DNA of 64,000 bases, taken from NCBI GenBank assembly GCA_025201345.1, contig JAIXMG010000001.1, forward strand, positions 1,798,001 to 1,862,000. The letters run 5' to 3'. The notes under the pieces were generated by a model, which searched no databases, had not been told where the DNA came from, and worked only from the letters and a program-made list of their open reading frames with translations. Position 1 is the stretch's first letter. Each line of letters opens with the position of its first letter. The position numbers and the translations under genes are program-made. This document shows positions 24,843 to 36,612 of this stretch, piece after piece. The stretch comes from Thamnidium elegans (lineage: Eukaryota > Mucoromycota > Mucoromycetes > Mucorales > Mucoraceae).

Positions 24843-27800
24843 TTATGACAAGTTGGGAAGAATATAAAGAGCAGAACGAAGTTTCGTCTTGACATAGACA
24901 GGATCACTCTTACGAATATATTGAAAGGTTTCTTGACCAGAAATTTCAGTATCTAATACGGGCCCGGAGTTTCCGTTAGCGAGACATTCAATGATCACAT
25001 TGATACCACCAATTTGGTTCAACTGTAAAGCAACCTTAAATTGTATAATATCATTTTCTTCTGCTTCAGGTAAGTAAGGCATATTAAACCGAACTTCTAG
25101 GACCTTTGTATGATTCTTATTTACACGCTTCCATTCCGGTTCAGTTACGTCGCTATAATCGCACGAAAAAATGGCTAAACATAAAAACAAATTTAGTATT
25201 TGCAGAAACAAAAAAAAAACAAAAAAAAAATTACCAATCACTGCATTTTTTGGGTATTCAATAAATACAAGCTTTTCATAAACATGCGTTTTTCCTTCAT
25301 CAGCTTCCTCATTCTTCTTTACAAAATATTCTAACTGAGACTTGAAATATTCTCGACCATCGTTAGCAATGAATGTTTCTCTTTGCAAAAGAGATTGTCC
25401 TGCTTTCTTAATAAAAGGTGCCTGTACCTCCAGGGCATAAGACAACCCAACCACCTTATTTGAAATCATGCGAGGTCTTTGGGCGTAAGACACGGCCCCT
25501 TCCGAAATGGCAGTAACTGCATTTTTGGGAACAACCACTCTAATACCATGTAATTTATACTTGTTAATCAATGTTTTTTGCAAGTACTTGCATTGAGAGA
25601 AACCTCCCACAAGCAAAATGACATGAACTTCTTCTCCTTTCATCGCTTTAATCTGTCGATCGATAAGTTCTTCGATCTTGCATACCACTGGACGGAATAT
25701 CATTTCTTCTAATTCTTTACAATGGATCTTTAAAACGTTGCCTTGGATTTTGGTTCTTCCTGTGATTGGTTGAGCACCGTAAGTAGGCGCAGGTAAAATC
25801 ACGTTGTAATAACGATCAGTGGTATCACTAGGGTTAAAATCATGCTACCAAAAATAAAAAAAGATCAATATTGATATCAAACCTATCCCTCCCCCCCCCC
25901 TTTTTTTTTGTATATGTGTATTTACTTTTATCTTCATAAAACTATTTGCAGTCTTTGAAAAATCAACATCATCACCTAAATCATACCCAAGACCAGCATA
26001 AAACGCTTTCATGTACTTTCTAAAATTACGTTCAAGGTACACAGAACCACATGTATCTCCTTCACCTTTTCCAATCTGATAAATAACTTCAGACCCTTCT
26101 TCATTATTCTTTAAACAAAAAGTAACTAAATCGACTGTTCCTCCTCCTGCATCACAAACAACAAAATTAAAGGCTCCGTCTTTTCTATAGTCCTGGTAAT
26201 ATCTTTCACACGCTAACGCAGCTGCTTCAGGCTCAGTAATAATTAACAATTTATCATGTTGTCCTTGTTCTATTAAACCAGCCTTAATAGCAGCCAACAC
26301 CATCGTATCTTTGGCTTCTCGATCCCACATGGCAGGTACCGTAATCACATAACTAAATACCAACCTTTCAGGGAAAATCCCAAGCCACTTGGGTGCTTCT
26401 TTGTCTCTGATTTGTGCATCAATATATGTTTTAAATAACTTTAAATATTCTGCAATCAAATCAATTGCTTCCACGTCTTCTGTTGTAAAACTTTCTCGAA
26501 TTTTAATAATGTTCTCATTTACTTCACCGTAATATTCTTTGACAGATTCAGGTGATAAGAATAATTTAAAGTTTTCTAATAATCTTTCAGAATATCGAAG
26601 CTGATGCTCTTTGGCTTTTTGACCCCATTTGCTTGTTACTTTTTGTGATTTTGTGTTGTAAACGAGTAGTGTAGGTGCTTTGGCATACTTTTTAAGATCT
26701 TGTTTTGGCCTTATTTTATATAAAAAGTCAATTAAACTCATGGACTATATAACTTTTCTTTCTTTTTTTTTTTTTTTTTTTTACCATGATGTAAGCGATC
26801 TTATCGACTTTGTTTTCTCTTCAAAACCAACATACGAACATCCAGAATGTGTAGTACCAAAATCTAAACATACACAAATGTCAAGTAATTGATTATAATG
26901 AAAAAATAAAAATGTACATACCAATACCAACAATAAAATCACACTTTTTAACAGTTTCTGGTTTTTTTCCTCTCTCCGTCACGACCGAATCCTCATGAGA
27001 AAACGGAATTTGCGATTCGTTAATTCTTAAGGCAAACGCCGTAGCACCGCGAGAAACAGCATCTAGAGACATATGATCAATGACGATATGACGCTTTTGG
27101 AATAATCCACCCGACGCGCTGGTCAAGGCATCAATGAGATTATAATCAGAGCCAAATTTACCGGTCAAGAATACACTTTCACATTCCTCTTGATCGACTT
27201 CTAAAATACTGTTGATAACATGATTGATAAATGGAAAAAAGACCTCTTGGCTCAATTGAAGAAGTGAAATTTGAATTGGGTTTACACCTCCTACATCTGT
27301 GGTTTTAAAAGGTGATGTGGTGGCGTGATACTTTATCTCTAGACTTTCAATATCATCCTTATGTGTATCTTCATTGGGTAAAACAAAATGGAACTAAAGT
27401 ATTTACATAATTAGGAAAAATGTATCTTTTTGTGTATTTTGATTATATTTACCTTTATTGATTCTGTAAATTCAAGAACTGCTGCTTCAATTGTAGGTCT
27501 ATTGATTTTAAGGTCATGTGCATTCTCTACCAAATAGTTTCTTAAATTGTTTTCTAAACACATTGAGCCTTGCCCAGCGTACTCAGAAAGAAGTGATACA
27601 GTACTAAGAGACTCAGTAACACTAACATTTATTTTAGAGATACCAAATGTAGTATGACCAATATCACACACCAAGTAATGTTTACCACCTTCTGTTTTAC
27701 TTAATTTACGATCCCACCCAAGACAATTATACGCAGCCGCTTCCGATTCAGTCACAAACATCAATCTGTATTCTGCTTCTTCTTTAGTTATAATACCAGC

Positions 27801-28439
27801 CTCGATAAAACAATAAGTCATCAGGTCACGTTGCGGCAAAGGACATGCGATACAATAACGACAGTCCTCAACTTTAAATGGTGTGTGATTAATTATTTTT
27901 TGTTCTGATATTTTCTCAATTGCTGCACCGTGTAACTTTTTTAAATAATCCGTAACCACTTTTTCAATAGTTAAACCTGCTTGTTCTAATTCCTCAAGAG
28001 TACGGTCGGTACCGCATATGTACTCTTTAATGCGTTTTATATAGACGTCTCCTTCTGAAACAGTAGGCTCTGATATCTCGAGGCCCCAGATCATACTGTC
28101 TTCGTGGTCAATTTTACCGTGTTTATAGAGAATGGAGGTAGGGACTTGCGTACATGGTTTTTTGGTATTTTCGGTCCTAATCAAATAGCTGAATACAATA
28201 CGATTTAATCAGTACAAACAATCTATTTACCAGTTATCAATCGTGTGTATTTTAAAAGCATCGTTTTTATGAGCCACTGAAACACTCGACGTGATGCCGC
28301 CGAACTCTATAATGGATAAAACGAAAAAAAACACGGTTAATAAATCATTTTACGTGACTTCCCCCTTCTTTTTAAAAAAAGATTTGACGTAACCTATTCC
28401 AACAACAAAAAGATACTTTTCAAAATTTGATGGAAACAT
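24843..28439 (-). CDS. tandem double HSPA12-like (Hsp70-type) ATPase protein, copy A
   Basis: Eight exons encode 1044 residues in one frame: 28439-28394, 28306-28231, 28188-27453, 27393-26922, 26863-26785, 26709-25926, 25844-25235, 25174-24843. Two actin-fold modules are fused. Module 1 (1-443) is degenerate: phosphate-1 reads VGIEFGG (13-19), phosphate-2 CDIGHTTFG (213-221), adenosine loop TGKFG (363-367). Module 2 (444-1044) is canonical: VGIDFGTTHSG, TVPAMWD, TEPEAAA, CDAGGGTVD (655-663), VGGFSQ (810-815), ISEGAVSYA, then a C-terminal beta-type region. The order and motifs are those of HSPA12-type Hsp70 relatives, which lack the classical peptide-binding lid. Introns fall at matching places in both modules (after VGI, phase 1; after the Trp/Cys codon near residue 41/470, phase 2; after IK, phase 0). 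Function unknown; an ATP-regulated sensor or chaperone is inference. Confidence 0.9.
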
Positions 28440-28954
28440 ATATATTGTATATATTTAAAAAAAGATAACGATGGGAAAAAGGGGGAAGGGGGAGTTAAAA
28501 TAAAAAAAAATCGTACAGGATTTTAGTCTTAATTGGTACGGTTGATTTTTTTTTGGTACGACTTCAGAATAAATTTGGTACACTTCATTTTTGGGACGGG
28601 TTACTTTTTTTTTGGTATTAAATGACAAGATTTTTTATACGTTTGCTTTTTTTTTTTGTACCAAATCTTTTAGAAATTAGCATGGACTATATTAGCTATA
28701 TACCTCCAAGCGACTATTATATTATTGACGATGAGTCTGAAGAACAGATGGAAGATAATTGACTTCGATTCAGCTACCGAAATACCCAAGTGGACTCAAC
28801 TAAAAGTATAAATACTTTTGAATACCATCGATATCCTTCTTTACTGAAAAAGGATTTACATGTGAATTAGTCACTCCAATTCACTTAGTTTTATTTCAAT
28901 GCCTAATGGCATAAAATTGTTTTGAATAAACTCTTTAATAATAAATAAAGAAAA
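28440..28954. other. intergenic upstream of double-HSPA12 gene A
   Basis: Short spacer between gene A and the recombinase-like gene. It holds a spaced TTGGTAC motif group (28533-28664, listed separately) and a 26-codon acidic open frame at 28682-28762 (+) of unknown meaning. Confidence 0.5.
28533..28664 (+). promoter_or_regulatory. spaced TTGGTAC motifs upstream of gene A
   Basis: TTGGTAC occurs at 28533, 28553 and 28575, a TTGGTAT variant at 28612, and the reverse complement GTACCAA at 28658-28664. The first three are 20 and 22 bp apart, close to two helical turns. They lie about 95-225 bp upstream of the start codon of the double-HSPA12 gene A. An operator for an unknown regulator is possible; chance in a low-complexity region is not excluded. 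Confidence 0.3.
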
Positions 28955-30098
28955 TCATTTTAATGATCTTTGAAATAAGGTATTGTTTCTACATTTAAAC
29001 TCTTGAAGCTTGTTTTGATCGTTTAAAAGCTCATCAGAATTATAAACATGTATCGAATTAGTGTGTGGGAGTTTGTCGACAATTAGCTTGACAATATTTG
29101 GGTTGTTCCTAATACGAATAGTTAGTAATGAGCTTTATATGATGTTATTTTTATATTTTGAGCTTTTACCTTAAAAATTGTTCCAAATCTTTACTATTCG
29201 TTGTTAACCCTGCAAAGTCAATTACTACAATGCATACCTTATCCCTGGTACGAATATATGTCAACAGATCTAGTGAATCGAAATGTAATATGGTTATAAT
29301 AAGTAATAAAAAAAATCTCCTTTTTCTCACCTTGCATGCCTCCATCTGCAGTTATCTTTGACAACATATCAGTATTCTTTTTTAAGTCTCTAGCAAGCAA
29401 AGGTTGGTTTGCGTCACAGGAAGCACTTGCAAACACTTTTGTTACAAGGGATCTTTCCTTGAGATTTGTACTCATTTGGTTTAACAGGCGAATGCGTGTA
29501 CTATCGTCTTTTTCACCGGTTGACTTTCTTATATATCCAATAATTTCATGTCCATTTTCTTTAAGGTTTCTGATGCTTTCTTGGTGCCGAGGTAATGTTT
29601 CAACAACATCTTTAATAATAGACTCTAAGAAACAGATTAGTTATGGAAACGATAACAGTTTCCGTATATTATATCTTACCGATGTATTGATCCTTTACTA
29701 CATACAGAATACGAGTTGAGATTTTGCGGTTGAATTCATCTTGCTTTCTTTTAATTGTGGCTTTCATTAGCTCCAACTTTCTCGCTCCACACCATTTACT
29801 TAAGCCTTGTACGTTCATGTCGTTTAAAATATTTGAATGCTTCCACACTATGCTAAGAATGTCATTCATACTTAAGCTTCTGCAAACATAAATCTCTTCA
29901 TTCTTTGGATCCGACGGTAACATTGTAATATTTAAGAAACTGATCAATTGTGCAGGGGAAACTAAAGAAAAACAGTATGAGTACTTATATTACTGAACAT
30001 AAAAAATGTAACAACTAACCAATTTCTCTTTTGTTAATTTGCCTGACATCAGTTGCTTCAATTTCATTCATGTATGTGTGGTTGTTTATGGGGTCCAT
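28955..30098 (-). CDS. serine-recombinase-like protein
   Basis: Five exons (30098-30020, 29961-29680, 29624-29331, 29269-29170, 29108-28955), phases closing, 302 residues. The N-terminal half is helical and basic. From about residue 150 it follows the resolvase fold: IIGYIRKSTGEKDDST (Ser at the nucleophile position), IRLLNQM (conserved Gln), SLVTKVFASASCDA, then VCIVVIDFAGLTTNSKDLEQ, which aligns with the helix that normally carries the catalytic arginines (DRLxR). Here those positions are Ala and Thr, so strand-exchange activity is doubtful. It probably derives from a dispersed fungal mobile element, possibly IS607-like. It sits inside the HSPA12-like cluster. No terminal repeats were found around it. 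Upstream exons cannot be excluded. Confidence 0.65.
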
Positions 30099-30982
30099 GA
30101 ATACGCTATTTTTATATAGCAAAAATGGTTTCGTAGGATCTGAGATATTTAGTATCGAATTATAAAATAAAAAGAGACGGCAGTAAATAAGATGAAACTT
30201 CTTTTGGATCTTTATTAATTAAAAAATGACTTCTAAAAAACAAGATAGAGAACAAAAGGTTGCCTCGTAAAATATCCTTTTTATAGTAGGTTTAAGAACC
30301 AGGGTAGTAAGCGATACCTAACTGAGGTTGTTGTGTAACCACCTCAGATATATTTGGAGTGATATCTTGCGTTAGTTTTTATGATTAAATACCACAGGAT
30401 CGTGTCTGTAGCAGATTTCAGTGTGTATGTTCTCGATCGCTTTCAGTAATTCTTCAGCTTTTTACTTGTTGTATGGCTGATGGTAGAACATGCAAATGGC
30501 TTGTTCACGTGTGATTAGTACCATAGCTGTTGCGAGATCGACAAGGCGATTGAGCTTAGCAATTAATAGAAAAGTGAAAATTAATAAACAAGCAGCAGAG
30601 GGAAAATATTCGAAAAGAAAGTGGACAAGATAAGTTGAGTTTGAAATAAATGCACAAGACATTAGACTTTGAATTTAATGGCTGAGTATCTTTACACAAA
30701 AACCAAACCTTATTTGAATTAAACGCAAAGTCGCCATAGTTTTTTTTTAAAAAAAAAGGCTGGTGTAACTGTTTATACGGTACATTTTTTTTTTACGCCG
30801 TTGTCATAAATGTGGTAATAAATTACTTTTATCACTCCCCTGTATTTTGTACATCTTTTTAAAAGAAATTATTGTTTTATTAAATATTTGTTTGTCGTTA
30901 TTTCTTTTTATAATTTATGTCACGTAATATCAAAGGTACAAATATATAAAATGAGAATTACCAGCATCCTTTTTTTTTTATC
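30099..30982. other. intergenic with a decayed coding fragment
   Basis: Spacer between the recombinase-like gene and the decayed HSPA12-like copy. It contains a broken coding stretch on the minus strand (30290-30662, see its own entry), a T9A9 palindrome at 30740-30757 and poly-T before 30980. Confidence 0.5.
30290..30662 (-). pseudogene. decayed coding fragment, family unknown
   Basis: Minus-strand reading gives a protein-like stretch (LNRLVDLATAMVLITREQA, then a stop, then KAEELLKAIENIHTEI) and, after a frame change, ITPNISEVVTQQPQLG. One nonsense codon (TAA) and one apparent frameshift break it. I do not recognise the family. It directly precedes the recombinase-like gene on the same strand and could be a fragment of a related element. 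Confidence 0.4.
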
Positions 30983-32538
30983 TTAGGTTATTATCATTCT
31001 AGGCTTTAGGGCATACGACACCGCTCCTTCCGAAATAGAGGTAACAGCATTGTCGGGAATAACAATTTTAATTGGTAGGAATGTTCTAGTTAACCTTTGC
31101 CTCAAGTAAGAGTTTTTTGAGAAACCACCTACTAATATGATTACATCAATCTTTCCCTTTTCCAGCTTGCCAATTTGCGTTTTTATTAATTCTTCAACGC
31201 GGTCGATAGTTGGGTCAAATATTTTTTCCTGCATATCCTTTCGACGGATTTTTAACCGTTTTCCATTTATTACTTGCCCCTTTTTATCGTAGCCGGAAGG
31301 TATTGGTCTTCCTAAATTAACTATAACATGCGAATCGTTTCCATCATAGGGCTCAAATTTAGGCTATGAGAATATGCTGTTAGTACCGCATATATATATA
31401 CGAATACAGTGGGAGGAGAAGTTTACCTTCAACTCGTTAATAAATGTCTTCATAGGCTGGTTAAAATCAGCCGAATTGTTAGGCATATCAAGACCAACAG
31501 GCCTATAAAAGTTCACCAAGTATTCTTTAAATTCATCATCAATATAGGTAGAACCACACGTATCGCCTTCACCATCGCCAAGTTGGAAAATAACGTCGTT
31601 CTCATTATCATCTTTTTCTAAACGAAATGTAACCAAATCAACTGTGCCTCCACCAGCATCACATACAATAAAATTAGCAGTAGCACCTTTGTTATGGTAT
31701 TTGTAGCTCATTTCACAACTTAATGCAGCAGCTTCTGGTTCAGTGATCATTAGCATATTTTGACGCTGATTGTTCTTGACCAAACCACCATGAATAGCAG
31801 CCTGTGTCATAAGTTCTTTTGCTCTGGCGTCCCACATGGCAGGAACAGTAAGTATATATAAAAAAGTAAGCTGGTTAGCTTTTTCAGCTTCTTTAATATG
31901 TTTTTCAACATAGTCTTTAAATAAACTCAAATAATTGCCAATGATTTCTACTACAATTGTTCCATCCATAGGAAAGTCCTCTGTAATTTGCCTGATTTCA
32001 TTATTTTCTATTCTGTATTGTTTGTTGACATCGGTAGGTGATAAAAATAATTTAAAGTAACCAAGTAAAACATTGTGAGGCTTTGGATAGGCGTCTTTGG
32101 CTGTTTGGTCCTATTCTTTTGTAATAGACCTGATTTTTTTGTCATATATAATGTTGGTAGGGGCTTTTTTCAAAACTAATATGTTCTTGGTTTGGCCTAA
32201 AAAGAGAAAAAAAAATCGAATGAGAAACAAGATGTAATATGGGGAGGGGAGAAGGGGGGTTCCAGTTACCAGTTTGTTTTAACAGGTTTGATTGTGGGTG
32301 GATCACTTTGCTCATCAACTCGACGAGCGTATGAACATCCAGAATAGGTAATACCAAAATCTATACAGCGTCAATAAAAACAATATACTGTTTTTTTTCT
32401 CGATAGAATAAACTAGCGCTTACTAATACCAACGAAAATGTCGCACTGGCCGATATGGTTCACCCAACCTTCTTTGGGCGAGCCTGTTACATCATCACCA
32501 TTAGACGTAACTGGCTCTATAAAGTCACCGTAATAGTT
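30983..32538 (-). pseudogene. decayed third HSPA12-like copy (C)
   Basis: Remnant of a gene like copies A and B. Pieces: about 32538-32424 (linker ending CDIFVGI), 32360-32270 (NFGITYSGCSY, where A has DFGTTHSGCSY), 32196-31427 and 31363-30983. The long exon is broken by a +1 shift within the first 15 codons (AAAAAA run near 32172) and by TAG at 32113-32111, where copy A has Trp. Beyond that it keeps TVPAMWD, TEPEAAA, CDAGGGTVD and VGGFSKN. The frame stops (TAA at 30983-30985) right after PRMI, so about 190 C-terminal residues present in A are missing. Module 1 is absent apart from the linker. Its closeness to A suggests recent tandem duplication followed by loss. Confidence 0.8.
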
Positions 32539-33200
32539 AGTGTAATGATTTCTATACAAGGTAGATTTCTATCTTTCACGTACTTGTTTTTCTATTTAAT
32601 AATGTTTGGAAAAATCTTCGCCCTACCATCTAATCTACATTTTTTTTTTAAAAAAAAAAATATAAGAAAAAAAGCAAGAAAAAGAAAAAAACAACTGTGC
32701 CGCAGATTATTGCGGTACCCAGATGAGACGTGTGATACTAAAAGGAAATATATCTAATGTTCTACAAGTACACTAAATGGCCACTTTATAAATTCCCAGA
32801 GTTCAATGTTCAATATAAAAGTCTATCTATTCCCAGTTGTGTACCGAGGAATTATCTTTAATGTCGCGCCCATAAATACTTGCGTAAGTATAGGCCAACC
32901 TTAAATATTTCGTATCTCTTAAAATTAAGCTTCTATTTAAAAAAAACAGTGCATTGGCTTGATCAAGGTTTTTTTGATCCGTTCGAGAAATGAGGCTTGA
33001 CAGTGCAACTTTAAATATAAAAAGAAAATCCGAGGCTTGTTTTATTTATAAGAAGGGGAAAGAAAGGAGAAAAAAAAAAAAAAAGCTCGAAAGCGACTAA
33101 TTTTTATTATTACGTTTGAAGATTGAAAATATTGATGCTGCCCTCCTACAATAAAATAAACATGTTAGCTATAGTGAAAATTGCGTAGACACAGGTTTAC
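32539..33200. other. intergenic
   Basis: Spacer between the decayed copy C and gene B, where module 1 of copy C would be expected. It is non-coding by eye. It holds a T10A11 palindrome at 32640-32660 and an A-rich run near 33070-33084. Confidence 0.5.
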
Positions 33201-36200
33201 CTACTGCGGCTTTTTTTCCATTAGTTTTGGTACTGAAGGCAGTGGGTTGACTTTTCGGTGTAATTTTTCCGTTTCTTCACGATGTTCAGAATTAGAGGCA
33301 TGGAAGATAAAGGATTGTCTTGTTGTTTCACCTTCAAAAATAGTATCAATCTTAATCTCTGTTTGTCCCAAAAACATACGAATCGTCAGCGGCACCACAT
33401 CACCGTCGTTTCTTTTACTATCTTTTGGCATCTCAATATTAAACTTGAATATCTCTTCAGCTCTAGGATCTCTGACGTTATATAACTCGTGATCTTTTTG
33501 GTAATCAGAAGCATAAATAGCTAAACGAAAAACAAAACAAAAAGCGGTTTAGAATTATTTTAAGAAACGATATGTATGTATACATGATTATTATGAGAAT
33601 TGTACCTGCATACGTATTGTTGGGATATTCTACATAGTATTGCTTCTCCAAATAATCGTATGTTCTAACTGAGGAATGCATACAAGCAAAGTTGTCGTAT
33701 TTGAATTTAGTATATTCCTTACCCTTTATCGTTTTGAATTTGTTCATAGCAGGATCTGTTACAGAGTTAAAGGGCAACATAACCTCGACACCGTATGATT
33801 TACGTATAATTCTTTGCGTGATCGCATTAGGGTTTAATGCAAGTGCGACAGCACCTCGAACTACAGATTGATCATATTGTTCTGGGGAATAAACGGGGAT
33901 CTTGGGATACATATCTCGTACTTTCTTTTGAAGATATCTAGACTGTCCTAAACCACCTGTCAAAATAATGACGTCCAATACATTCACATTCTCTTTGATT
34001 CGAGCAGAAATTTTATGTTGGTCTTTGATCAGCTTTAGTACATCGTCCGTTACAGGTTCAAAAACTTGGGCTGAAAGTTCATTTGGAGTTACCTCTAACT
34101 TTAAACCCTTTTCCTTAGCTTTTTCATCTGGTATATCTATTTCAATATCATTTTTATCGCTCGCCATGAAACGATCCTTTATAGAAAATATTAGTTTAGT
34201 ATTGTTTGTTTGTTGATTTTTATAGAAAAAAAAAAGTGCGTAACTTACTTTAATTTTAGTGGCGAATTGGTTCACCATTTGCTCTAGTGCGTAATCTGAT
34301 ACTCGATAATCCATGTCGTAACACTTTCGGGCAACAAGCTTCCTGAAACGGTCATCCAAGAATGAGGCACCGCATATACCACCTGATCCAGGTGTTACTT
34401 CGTCAATTGCGTATCCTTCAGAAACTTTAAAAAGGTCGTATGTTGCCATATCAACCGTTCCGCCGCCGGCGTCACATACTAATGCACGCATTTGTGTCTT
34501 GTCTTGGAACCGCTTCACAAAGTCTGGAGACTTTGTATAAAACATAGCGGCCGCCTCCGGCTCGTTTACAAGCATCAGCCTACAAGGATGATCATAGTCA
34601 TGAATGATCTCAGCCATGACAGCCGCGTCACGCATATATTTTTTGGTCCTATCGCTCCAAATTGTCGGTACAGTAAGACAATAGCGAAATTTGGAAGGTC
34701 CGTCGCCAATTAGCGTTTTCATAGTTTCTAAAATCTTTGTATGTAAAGCTTTAAGATAACTGGCAATATATTTTACAGCAATCAACTCGTCAAAATTTTC
34801 ATTCGTAATTTCATTTAATAATAACTTGAAACGAGCAAGAAGTTTTCCAGAATTTTCGGGACTGTAATAATTTTTGTATGCCTCTGTTCCCCATAGTTTT
34901 TGTTCGTGAAGTCTTTGATCGTAGAGTGAAAACGAAGGAATTTGCATAAGTGGTTTACTACAGAAGTGGGAGGAGATGTTAGGTATACACATCTTTTAAG
35001 TTCTGATCTCTAAAATTTACTCAAACTCGACCGGTGTGCTGGGAGTTGACGACTGATAGTACCATTTTGAAAAGCTCGTACCAAAGTCTTAAAAACAACA
35101 AACAAATATACGTTAAAAGCCCATGGTACATCTATATAAAAAAAAACGGTATACATACCTATACCAATCACATGAGTGTAGCTGGAGTAGTTAAAGTCAT
35201 AATAAGAGAGGTCTTCCTTTCCAGCTAATTGGTTAATTCCTTCGTGTATAGGCATCATTCTTTGAATACTTAATGGTTCATTAAGTCCATGAAATACAGA
35301 TCCTTGAGCAGCGGATACATCTTTTTCTGGAATAACAATGATCTCATCTACAACCGTCTTTAGTCTTTCGTACAGATAATCAGAGTTTGAAAACTTTCCA
35401 AACAAAAAGAACGCTTTGGGTTCTTGCTCATGGCACACTTTTAATACATGCTTACAAATTTGATCAATCACTTTGTCATAAACATTCTTCTTTAAGTCAT
35501 CCGTATTTAGTGTCAAATAAGGGTCTTTTGATTTCTTGAATGGAGAAGCTGGCTTTGCTATATATATTTCTTGTTTCTTACCAAAATCTTTATACTAAGG
35601 AGCACAATTTTTTTTTTTAGTTTTGGCTAAAGCAATTACAAACTCTATTTTTAAAACGGTACCTTAATATTTTTTACAAAGTTTTGAACCATGCTTTCAA
35701 CGACAGCGTCAAAATTAGCTTTTTCCATGTCTTTATAATCATCATGCTGGCGTGCAATGACTGAAATATATTCTTTAAAATAAATGTCCAATTGATTACC
35801 ACCTAACTCATTGTCTGTAAGATTAAGCTTAAGTTCCTTGACGTCTTTATTTCTTCCATTACTGATAACTTCTATTGTCTTTATTGTTAAATAGTAGTCA
35901 TCTGCATCGCAAACAATAAACTTATCCCTTAAATTAAGTCCTTCCCTAGTTTTCAAAAAGTATTTGGCCATAGCGGTATAAGAATCCAAAAATACAAGCT
36001 TATCATCTCTATCATTTTCATTGTATAAACCAGCTCTGACGATTGAAGCAATAAAGTTCTTTTTATAATTGGGTTCACCAGGATGCTGCAGTGTAAAGCA
36101 GTATCTAATTCTTGGTTTAAGGTTGGGGTTATTAGCGCTCTGCTTTATCTTTTTTAAAATGTGATCATTAAAAATCTTTAAAAAATCAGCTACATAATCC

Positions 36201-36612
36201 TTTGGGTCTTTTCGACCTGTAGGAAAATTCGTATTGAGACTATGAGGAAGTTCCTTTTGTAGAACAGATAATGGAGTCTCCGGTACATTTCCTATACCAA
36301 TAGGCTGTCCGGTTCTTTTTGAATACGTTATAGTAGTCGGTACTGTGGTTATCAGTGCAGACTGTCTAGGCCTAAAAAAAAATAAAAAAAATCGAATGTT
36401 CAATATTAAAAAAATCGAAGCATCTCCTTTCTTAATTACCAGTTACGAATAATTTCTATTGATTGAGAGTCATCCTCTACAAGGGCAAAGCAACAGCAGG
36501 AGTATGTTGTACCAAAGTCTAGTTTTTATATTATTTTAGTTAGATCAGTGTAGGACGCAAGCTAAATGAACGTACCGATGCCAACAACATAATCATACTC
36601 ATCTTTAAACAT
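33201..36612 (-). CDS. tandem double HSPA12-like (Hsp70-type) ATPase protein, copy B
   Basis: Eight exons encode 975 residues: 36612-36576, 36518-36440, 36371-35663, 35594-35159, 35087-35021, 34957-34249, 34176-33606, 33520-33201. Exon number, order and phases match copy A. Module 1 (1-420) keeps phosphate-1 (VVGIDFGTTYS, 9-19), but phosphate-2 is CDADDYYL (193-200) instead of CDAGGGTV, and the TEPEAAA position reads DSYTAMA. Module 2 (421-975) has VIGIDFGTSFS, TVPTIWSD, NEPEAAAM, CDAGGGTVD (604-612) and TGGLGQSRYL, followed by the C-terminal region. So again a pseudo-ATPase is fused to an apparently competent ATPase. The short exon 5 needs the 63-nt intron ending at 34958; the first downstream ATG frame misleads if splicing is ignored. 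Divergent from the METTL17 gene. Confidence 0.9.

What the first reader, a model, noticed from the sequence alone, without database searches (positions are those of the whole stretch)
24843..36612. Two genes encode fused pairs of HSPA12-like Hsp70 modules
Copies A (1044 aa) and B (975 aa) each join two complete actin-fold ATPase modules in one spliced frame; the linker runs directly into the second GIDFGTT loop. Introns after VGI (phase 1), near residue 41/470 (phase 2) and after IK (phase 0) recur at homologous places in modules 1 and 2 of both genes, which is direct evidence of intragenic tandem duplication that carried introns with it. Known HSPA12 proteins, as I understand them, have one module. 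A covalent Hsp70-like dimer would be a new architecture.
Basis: partly seen in the sequence, partly recalled or inferred. Interest (0 to 1): 0.88.

Follow-up and report, generated by a model that had tools for sequence, protein, structure and literature searches.

The report
Fused pseudo-ATPase and ATPase chaperone pair
Two neighbouring genes of a pin-mould fungus encode Hsp70-like proteins with two ATPase-type domains joined end to end, of which the first has lost catalytic residues and the second has kept them; related moulds share the layout, and it may be a built-in regulator fused to a working chaperone motor.

Summary
Genes A (28439-24843, 8 exons, 1040 aa) and B (36612-33201, 8 exons, 975 aa) each encode two HSPA12-like Hsp70 nucleotide-binding domains (NBDs) in one frame. 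The join lies inside one exon in both, and deposited protein models cross it at 100% identity. The interpretation needs three changes. (1) By sequence the first NBD is not a working ATPase: it lacks the phosphate-2 GGGT loop and the adenosine GG pair, and has no tail. The layout is pseudo-NBD, NBD, beta tail. (2) The shared introns do not prove intragenic duplication: two single-module paralogues in the same genome carry the whole set. (3) The fusion is not confined to this window: 75 of 283 listed homologues have two NBDs, from 16 named species. An AU test rejects separate fusions for A and B (p=0.019), but KH and SH tests do not. A second class in the same moulds shows the mirror-image loss (active NBD first, degenerate second), and on one contig four such genes alternate. 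In three paralogues the first NBD is under purifying selection about as strong as the second. The likeliest role is an intramolecular, Hsp110-like or pseudokinase-like regulator of the active NBD; that mechanism is inferred, not shown.

The parts
24843..28439 (-). Gene A, 8 coding exons, 1040 aa: pseudo-NBD (res 1-406), linker (407-436), NBD (about 437-848), beta tail (849-1040)
26922..27393 (-). Exon 4 of A: one exon that carries the end of module 1, the linker and the first residues of module 2 (the join)
   Evidence: no intron, stop or gap at the join
26932..27021 (-). Linker of A between the two NBDs; no Met in it (last Met before module 2 is residue 390)
28296..28403 (-). A module 1 phosphate-1 loop, VGIEFGG (canonical VGIDFGTT), split by intron 1
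27642..27668 (-). A module 1 phosphate-2 loop, degenerate: CDIGHTTFG (canonical CDAGGGTVD)
27151..27168 (-). A module 1 adenosine motif, degenerate: LTGKFG (canonical LVGGFG)
26130..26156 (-). A module 2 phosphate-2 loop, intact: CDAGGGTVD
25593..25613 (-). A module 2 adenosine motif, intact: LVGGFSQ
33201..36612 (-). Gene B, 8 coding exons, 975 aa, same layout as A
35159..35594 (-). Exon 4 of B, carries the join
35885..35911 (-). B module 1 phosphate-2 loop, lost: CDADDYYLT
35385..35405 (-). B module 1 adenosine motif, degenerate: LFGKFSN
34450..34476 (-). B module 2 phosphate-2 loop, intact: CDAGGGTVD
33943..33963 (-). B module 2 adenosine motif, intact: LTGGLGQ
30983..32460 (-). Copy C: pseudogene between B and A, one module-2-like NBD, frame broken near its start, no module 1 and no tail found

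Best explanation
A and B are pseudo-heterodimeric HSPA12-like Hsp70s: an N-terminal NBD that has lost catalytic motifs is fused to an NBD that keeps them and carries a C-terminal SBD-beta-like tail. Shown by sequence: the layout, the loss of motifs in module 1 and the occurrence of the fused form in other species. Supported but not settled: one common fusion behind A and B. Inferred: module 1 packs against the active NBD and sets its nucleotide exchange or hydrolysis rate from within the same chain, as the Hsp110 (Sse1) NBD faces the Hsp70 NBD in trans, or as pseudokinase halves control kinase halves (recalled). Also inferred: the fused gene arose from tandem single-module copies by loss of the first copy's tail and the second copy's start. 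I put the layout at about 0.97, a non-catalytic module 1 at about 0.85, and the regulatory role at about 0.45.
Against: No transcript or biochemical data. The structure tool gave no domain-domain error estimate, so an NBD-NBD interface is not shown. Separate fusions of A and B are not rejected by KH (p=0.088) or SH (p=0.105), and the grouping of module 1 may be long-branch attraction. A-like module 1 keeps some nucleotide contacts (K71 in 9/28, E175 in 16/28, D199 in 26/28), so weak nucleotide binding is possible, and 7 of 28 A-like module 2 sequences do not read GGGT exactly. Two further module 2 sequences left out of that count are also damaged (P0019, P0027). Pairs with the pseudogene L043 and dS under 1 give module 1 dN/dS of 0.42-0.52, not far from intact pairs.
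Confidence: 0.5

Rival explanations
1. Module 1 is a recognition domain: a pseudo-NBD freed from catalysis that binds clients, membranes or partner proteins, and varies between paralogues, while module 2 is the motor.
For: The family is large in T. elegans and partly lies in a tandem array. Linker and module 1 diverge faster between species than the module 2 NBD: B against P0124 is 41% in module 1, 15% in the linker and 52% in the module 2 NBD (35% in the tail).
Against: Module 1 dN/dS is at most slightly above module 2 in the three intact pairs with dS under 1 (0.41, 0.35, 0.48 against 0.37, 0.36, 0.37). No binding motif was looked for.
Confidence: 0.27
2. Module 1 is a passenger: a decaying copy kept because removing it would break the frame.
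For: Catalytic residues are lost, and broken copies exist (L043, copy C).
Against: Two-NBD proteins occur in 16 named species. Module 1 of A and B aligns over nearly all NBD columns, and module 1 of B has high pLDDT in the model. dN/dS is well under 1 in intact paralogues.
Confidence: 0.08
3. Module 1 is a nucleotide-binding but non-hydrolysing sensor, in A-like proteins at least.
For: A module 1 keeps equivalents of K71, E175, D199 and T204.
Against: B module 1 keeps neither K71, E175 nor T204, and both lack the second G of the adenosine motif.
Confidence: 0.13
4. Artefact: two separate genes merged by the reader's splicing.
For: Some deposited models start late or are split: P0001 starts at Met69 of A, P0131 keeps only about 77 residues of module 1, and P0234 covers only the second half of a class 2 gene.
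Against: The join is inside one exon, not across an intron or an intergenic gap. The A linker has no Met. Models deposited by others cross the join in A and B, and two-NBD models are deposited for many species.
Confidence: 0.02

Closest known systems
HSPA12A / HSPA12B (atypical Hsp70s)
   Same: Divergent Hsp70-type NBD followed by a C-terminal substrate domain. Several fungal single-module relatives are named 'Heat shock 70 kDa protein 12A' by their source.
   Different: The described proteins have one NBD and one substrate domain (passages of PMC6345817); two NBDs here, the first degenerate and without a tail.
Hsp110 (Sse1) with Hsp70
   Same: Two Hsp70-type NBDs face to face, one protein acting as exchange factor for the other (passages of PMC4753570). 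Module 2 plus tail also resembles Sse1 in structure.
   Different: Separate polypeptides that meet in trans; here both NBDs are in one chain with one tail. No exchange activity has been tested.
Membrane adenylyl cyclases (pseudoheterodimers by duplication and fusion)
   Same: A monomeric progenitor duplicated and fused, then the halves diverged (abstract and passages of PMC9552081).
   Different: Unrelated fold; there the two halves build a joint catalytic centre (recalled), here each NBD has its own site and one has lost its motifs.
Mammalian hexokinases 1-3 (recalled, no call)
   Same: Duplicated and fused actin-fold ATPases, in some of which one half has lost catalysis.
   Different: Sugar kinases, not Hsp70s; no substrate-binding tail.

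Membership tests
Hsp70 (Pfam PF00012) | Whole-protein score above the curated cut-off | tested here: met
   A 35.1 and B 45.4 bits against 20.6; A's only stretch and B's best stretch lie in module 2
Hsp70 ATPase, module 2 | Intact phosphate and adenosine motifs in the NBD | tested here: met
   All 12 positions examined are canonical in module 2 of A and of B
Hsp70 ATPase, module 1 | GGGT phosphate-2 loop and GG adenosine motif | tested here: not met
   A module 1 GHTT and GK; B module 1 DDYY and GK
Hsp70, full | Alpha-helical lid after the beta substrate domain | tested here: inconclusive
   The model of B has a beta tail and only one short helix (943-954), with low confidence beyond; in the 50 rows shown the structural match stops at model residue 942
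HSPA12-like | Relation to HSPA12A/B | tested here: inconclusive
   Only source names of homologues; no comparison with the human proteins was made
HSPA12-like | One NBD per chain | tested here: not met
   Two NBDs in A and B; 208 of 283 listed relatives have one
Hsp110-type exchange factor | Speeds nucleotide release from an Hsp70 NBD | not testable with these tools
   Needs purified protein

The most novel reading that the evidence does not exclude
Mucorineae moulds evolved a dedicated family of covalent pseudo-heterodimeric chaperones in two mirror-image classes: pseudo-NBD then NBD (class 1), and NBD then pseudo-NBD (class 2). They are encoded side by side, on one contig in alternation, and may assemble with each other, so that each pseudo-NBD controls an active NBD in cis or in trans. 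That would be a self-contained Hsp70 cycle with its exchange factor built in.
Probability: 0.2. Interest if true: 0.82.

Novelty: new variant of a known kind. Interest (0 to 1): 0.62.

Why it matters
Hsp70 NBDs are usually controlled by separate proteins, and Hsp110, a relative, controls Hsp70 NBD to NBD. A family in which a dead NBD is fused to a live one, with dead and live halves in either order, would give natural cis versions of that control. Removing the dead half can test directly whether a pseudo-NBD regulates a live one. It also shows pseudoenzyme formation by fusion and one-sided loss inside the Hsp70 superfamily. Seven of my ten searches of the held open-access library aimed at this subject; none of the titles they listed is about such a fusion in fungi (one search listed 15 of 55 papers). 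I judged by listings only, apart from passages of one paper (PMC8778642), and the library lacks most subscription journals.

Tried and rejected
Merging artefact: rejected, because the join is within one exon. Introns as proof of intragenic duplication: rejected, because 2 of 11 single-module gene models have the full set. Separate fusions in A and in B: excluded by AU (p=0.019) but not by KH (0.088) or SH (0.105); an A-only tandem origin likewise (AU 0.036, KH 0.145, SH 0.186). These come from 5000 RELL resamplings where the program advises 10000, and from constrained trees found with shortened searches, which leans towards exclusion. One common fusion for class 1 and class 2 is marginal (AU 0.053). 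An own duplication for class 2 (0.67), module 1 and module 2 each forming one clade (0.21) and all class 1 modules in one clade (0.29) are not excluded, so the exact birth of the fusion stays open. A first round with fast searches was replaced. A module-1 remnant before copy C: none found by tblastn with module 1 of A, B, L040 and P0005. Solved structures: in the 60 of 120 rows shown, the profile of the B alignment matched PDB chains only from profile position 415 on, and the 50 VIA-align rows shown covered model residues 406-942 only, so module 1 was not tested by itself against PDB; its fold rests on the profile match and the predicted model. The gene between copy C and A has no Pfam match over cut-off. 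A paper search for the hexokinase precedent listed adenylyl cyclases among others; the hexokinase comparison is recalled.

Full report
What is there. On the minus strand of the window lie two spliced genes with eight coding exons each. Gene A (28439-24843) encodes 1040 aa and gene B (36612-33201) 975 aa. I built both by hand; a splice-aware profile aligner, whose profiles include A and B, placed the same introns. The organism is Thamnidium elegans (Mucorales, Mucorineae, Mucoraceae): deposited T. elegans proteins P0001 and P0121 match A and B at 100% over every aligned residue. P0001 starts at Met69 of my model of A. I keep exons 1-2 because the other fused paralogues have the same two exons, but that start is not proven.

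The join. A profile built from 62 homologues of 545-600 aa finds an NBD (columns 6-407 in A, 9-413 in B) followed by a second NBD with a tail (columns 7-533 in A, 4-549 in B). The end of module 1, the linker and the first residues of module 2 share exon 4: 472 bases in A and 436 in B. No intron or gap has to be bridged. The A linker has no Met. Module 1 stops at the end of the NBD, and only one tail is present.

One half looks dead by sequence. Equivalents of Hsc70 residues (numbers recalled, mapped by motif) were counted over a set chosen by hand: 28 A-like proteins (24 deposited, A and three own-genome models), 12 B-like (11 deposited and B) and 21 of the 29 class 2 proteins. Left out were 10 of the 45 deposited class 1 proteins (P0001 and P0121, which equal A and B, and 8 others, most of them short in module 1) and the own-genome model L040; gaps are not counted. 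Module 1 has the phosphate-2 GGGT in 0 of 23 (A-like) and 0 of 12 (B-like), and the adenosine GG in 0 of 25 and 0 of 12. Module 2 has GGGT in 21 of 28 and 12 of 12, and GG in 28 of 28 and 12 of 12. Single-module sequences have them in 210 of 211 and 211 of 211. Of the eight others left out, P0019 and P0027 have a damaged module 2 loop. A and B lost different further residues: A module 1 keeps K71, E175, D199 and T204 but has E for D10 and G for T13; B module 1 keeps D10, T13 and D199 but lost K71, E175 and T204.

Introns. In the six T. elegans class 1 genes without stops (A, B, L039, L040, L041, L042), module 1 has the column 18 phase 1 and column 44 phase 2 introns in 6 of 6. The column 288 phase 0 intron was called by the aligner in 4 of 6; in L040 and L042 a GT donor sits at the same codon on inspection. 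Module 2 has them in 6 of 6, 5 of 6 (B at column 49, phase 2) and 6 of 6, plus a tail intron at column 482 phase 1 in 6 of 6. The aligner also called a few further introns in L039, L040 and L042, some with GC donors, which I do not trust. Among 11 single-module gene models of the same genome, 3 have the first, 11 the second, 3 the third and 5 the tail intron; two (L048, L050) have all four (five further loci of that call hold the other double types). The introns therefore come from a single-module ancestor. They show that both modules are copies of such a gene, but not whether the copy was made inside one gene or by fusing two neighbours.

Spread. Three searches list their best 120 each, 283 distinct proteins in all. 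With at least 80 NBD columns asked of each module, 75 have two NBDs, 208 have one and none has three. By the source names, the 75 come from 16 species: T. elegans, Helicostylum pulchrum, eleven Mucor species (mucedo, flavus, saturninus, hiemalis, lusitanicus, velutinosus, circinelloides, bainieri, ambiguus, atramentarius, fragilis), Parasitella parasitica, Backusella circina and Pilobolus umbonatus; three proteins are unnamed. I checked three of these species, all in suborder Mucorineae; the placement of the rest is recalled. The lists are capped, so other lineages are not excluded. A-like and B-like genes also seem to share a contig, judged by equal contig length and in two species by locus tags two apart, in Mucor velutinosus, M. 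bainieri, Parasitella and Backusella. The pair A plus B may therefore be old.

Tree. A tree of 102 NBDs, a hand-picked part of what was at hand (401 columns, LG+G4; two short modules left out), groups A-like and B-like module 1 together with support 98; A-like and B-like module 2 do not form one group in it. Separate fusions in A and B are excluded by the AU test (p=0.019) but not by KH (0.088) or SH (0.105); alternatives with one origin are not excluded (AU 0.21, 0.29). Backbone supports are low, 17 of 102 sequences failed a composition test, and module 1 branches are long, so attraction of long branches remains possible. I treat one origin as likely, not shown.

Mirror class. T. elegans and its relatives also have proteins of mostly 1100-1270 aa with the active NBD first and a degenerate NBD second, then a tail that matches only weakly or not at all. 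In the 21 counted, the first NBD has GGGT in 18 of 21 and GG in 21 of 21, while the second has GG in 0 of 14 and E175 in 0 of 21; the stretch around its phosphate-2 loop could not be aligned in any. On contig C34 four genes alternate on the minus strand: class 1 at 857.7-854.0 kb, class 2 from 851.0 kb, class 1 at 845.0-841.2 kb, class 2 from 839.5 kb. Mucor flavus has consecutive locus tags of class 2, class 1, class 2. No class 2 gene was found in the window. A third type, two NBDs and no tail found, is on contig C8 and in Helicostylum (P0062); its two NBDs group with the single-module gene L050 at support 100, so that fusion looks independent.

How it may work. The active NBD with its beta tail has what an Hsp70 cycle needs. 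HSPA12A binding to its client SorLA falls as ATP rises (passages of PMC6345817), so such a cycle is plausible in this branch. A dead NBD fixed next to a live one recalls Hsp110, whose NBD faces the Hsp70 NBD (passages of PMC4753570). I therefore think module 1 most likely acts as a built-in regulator of nucleotide exchange or hydrolysis (about 0.45), with recognition of clients or partners next (about 0.27). Neither is shown.

Verdict. The meaning shifts from a dimer of ATPases to a pseudo-ATPase fused to an ATPase, with a mirror-image class in the same genome. It is a new variant of a known kind.

Noticed in passing
window 32460-30983 (-): Copy C, a module-2-like pseudogene between B and A: frame broken early, tail not found, first exon without an in-frame Met after the last stop, as if it had once been an internal exon of a fused gene.
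   Followed up: partly
window about 30077-28870 (-): A spliced gene of unknown family between copy C and A; no Pfam match over cut-off for the part tested.
   Followed up: partly
L039, L040, L055, L056+L059 (contig C34): Four double-NBD genes on one strand that alternate between class 1 (dead-live) and class 2 (live-dead).
   Followed up: partly
L053 (contig C8): Double NBD without a tail, both halves partly degenerate; groups with single-module gene L050, so probably an independent fusion.
   Followed up: partly
L043 (contig C28): A fused class 1 copy with 4 stops in the aligned frame: a pseudogene.
   Followed up: partly
contig C15 at 339.6 kb and 350.5 kb: Two HSPA12-like hits with identical scores about 10.9 kb apart, perhaps a very recent duplication.
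   Followed up: no
P0234 (contig length equal to C34): A deposited T. elegans model begins close to the second NBD of a class 2 gene whose relatives in other models and species are annotated as fused.
   Followed up: no
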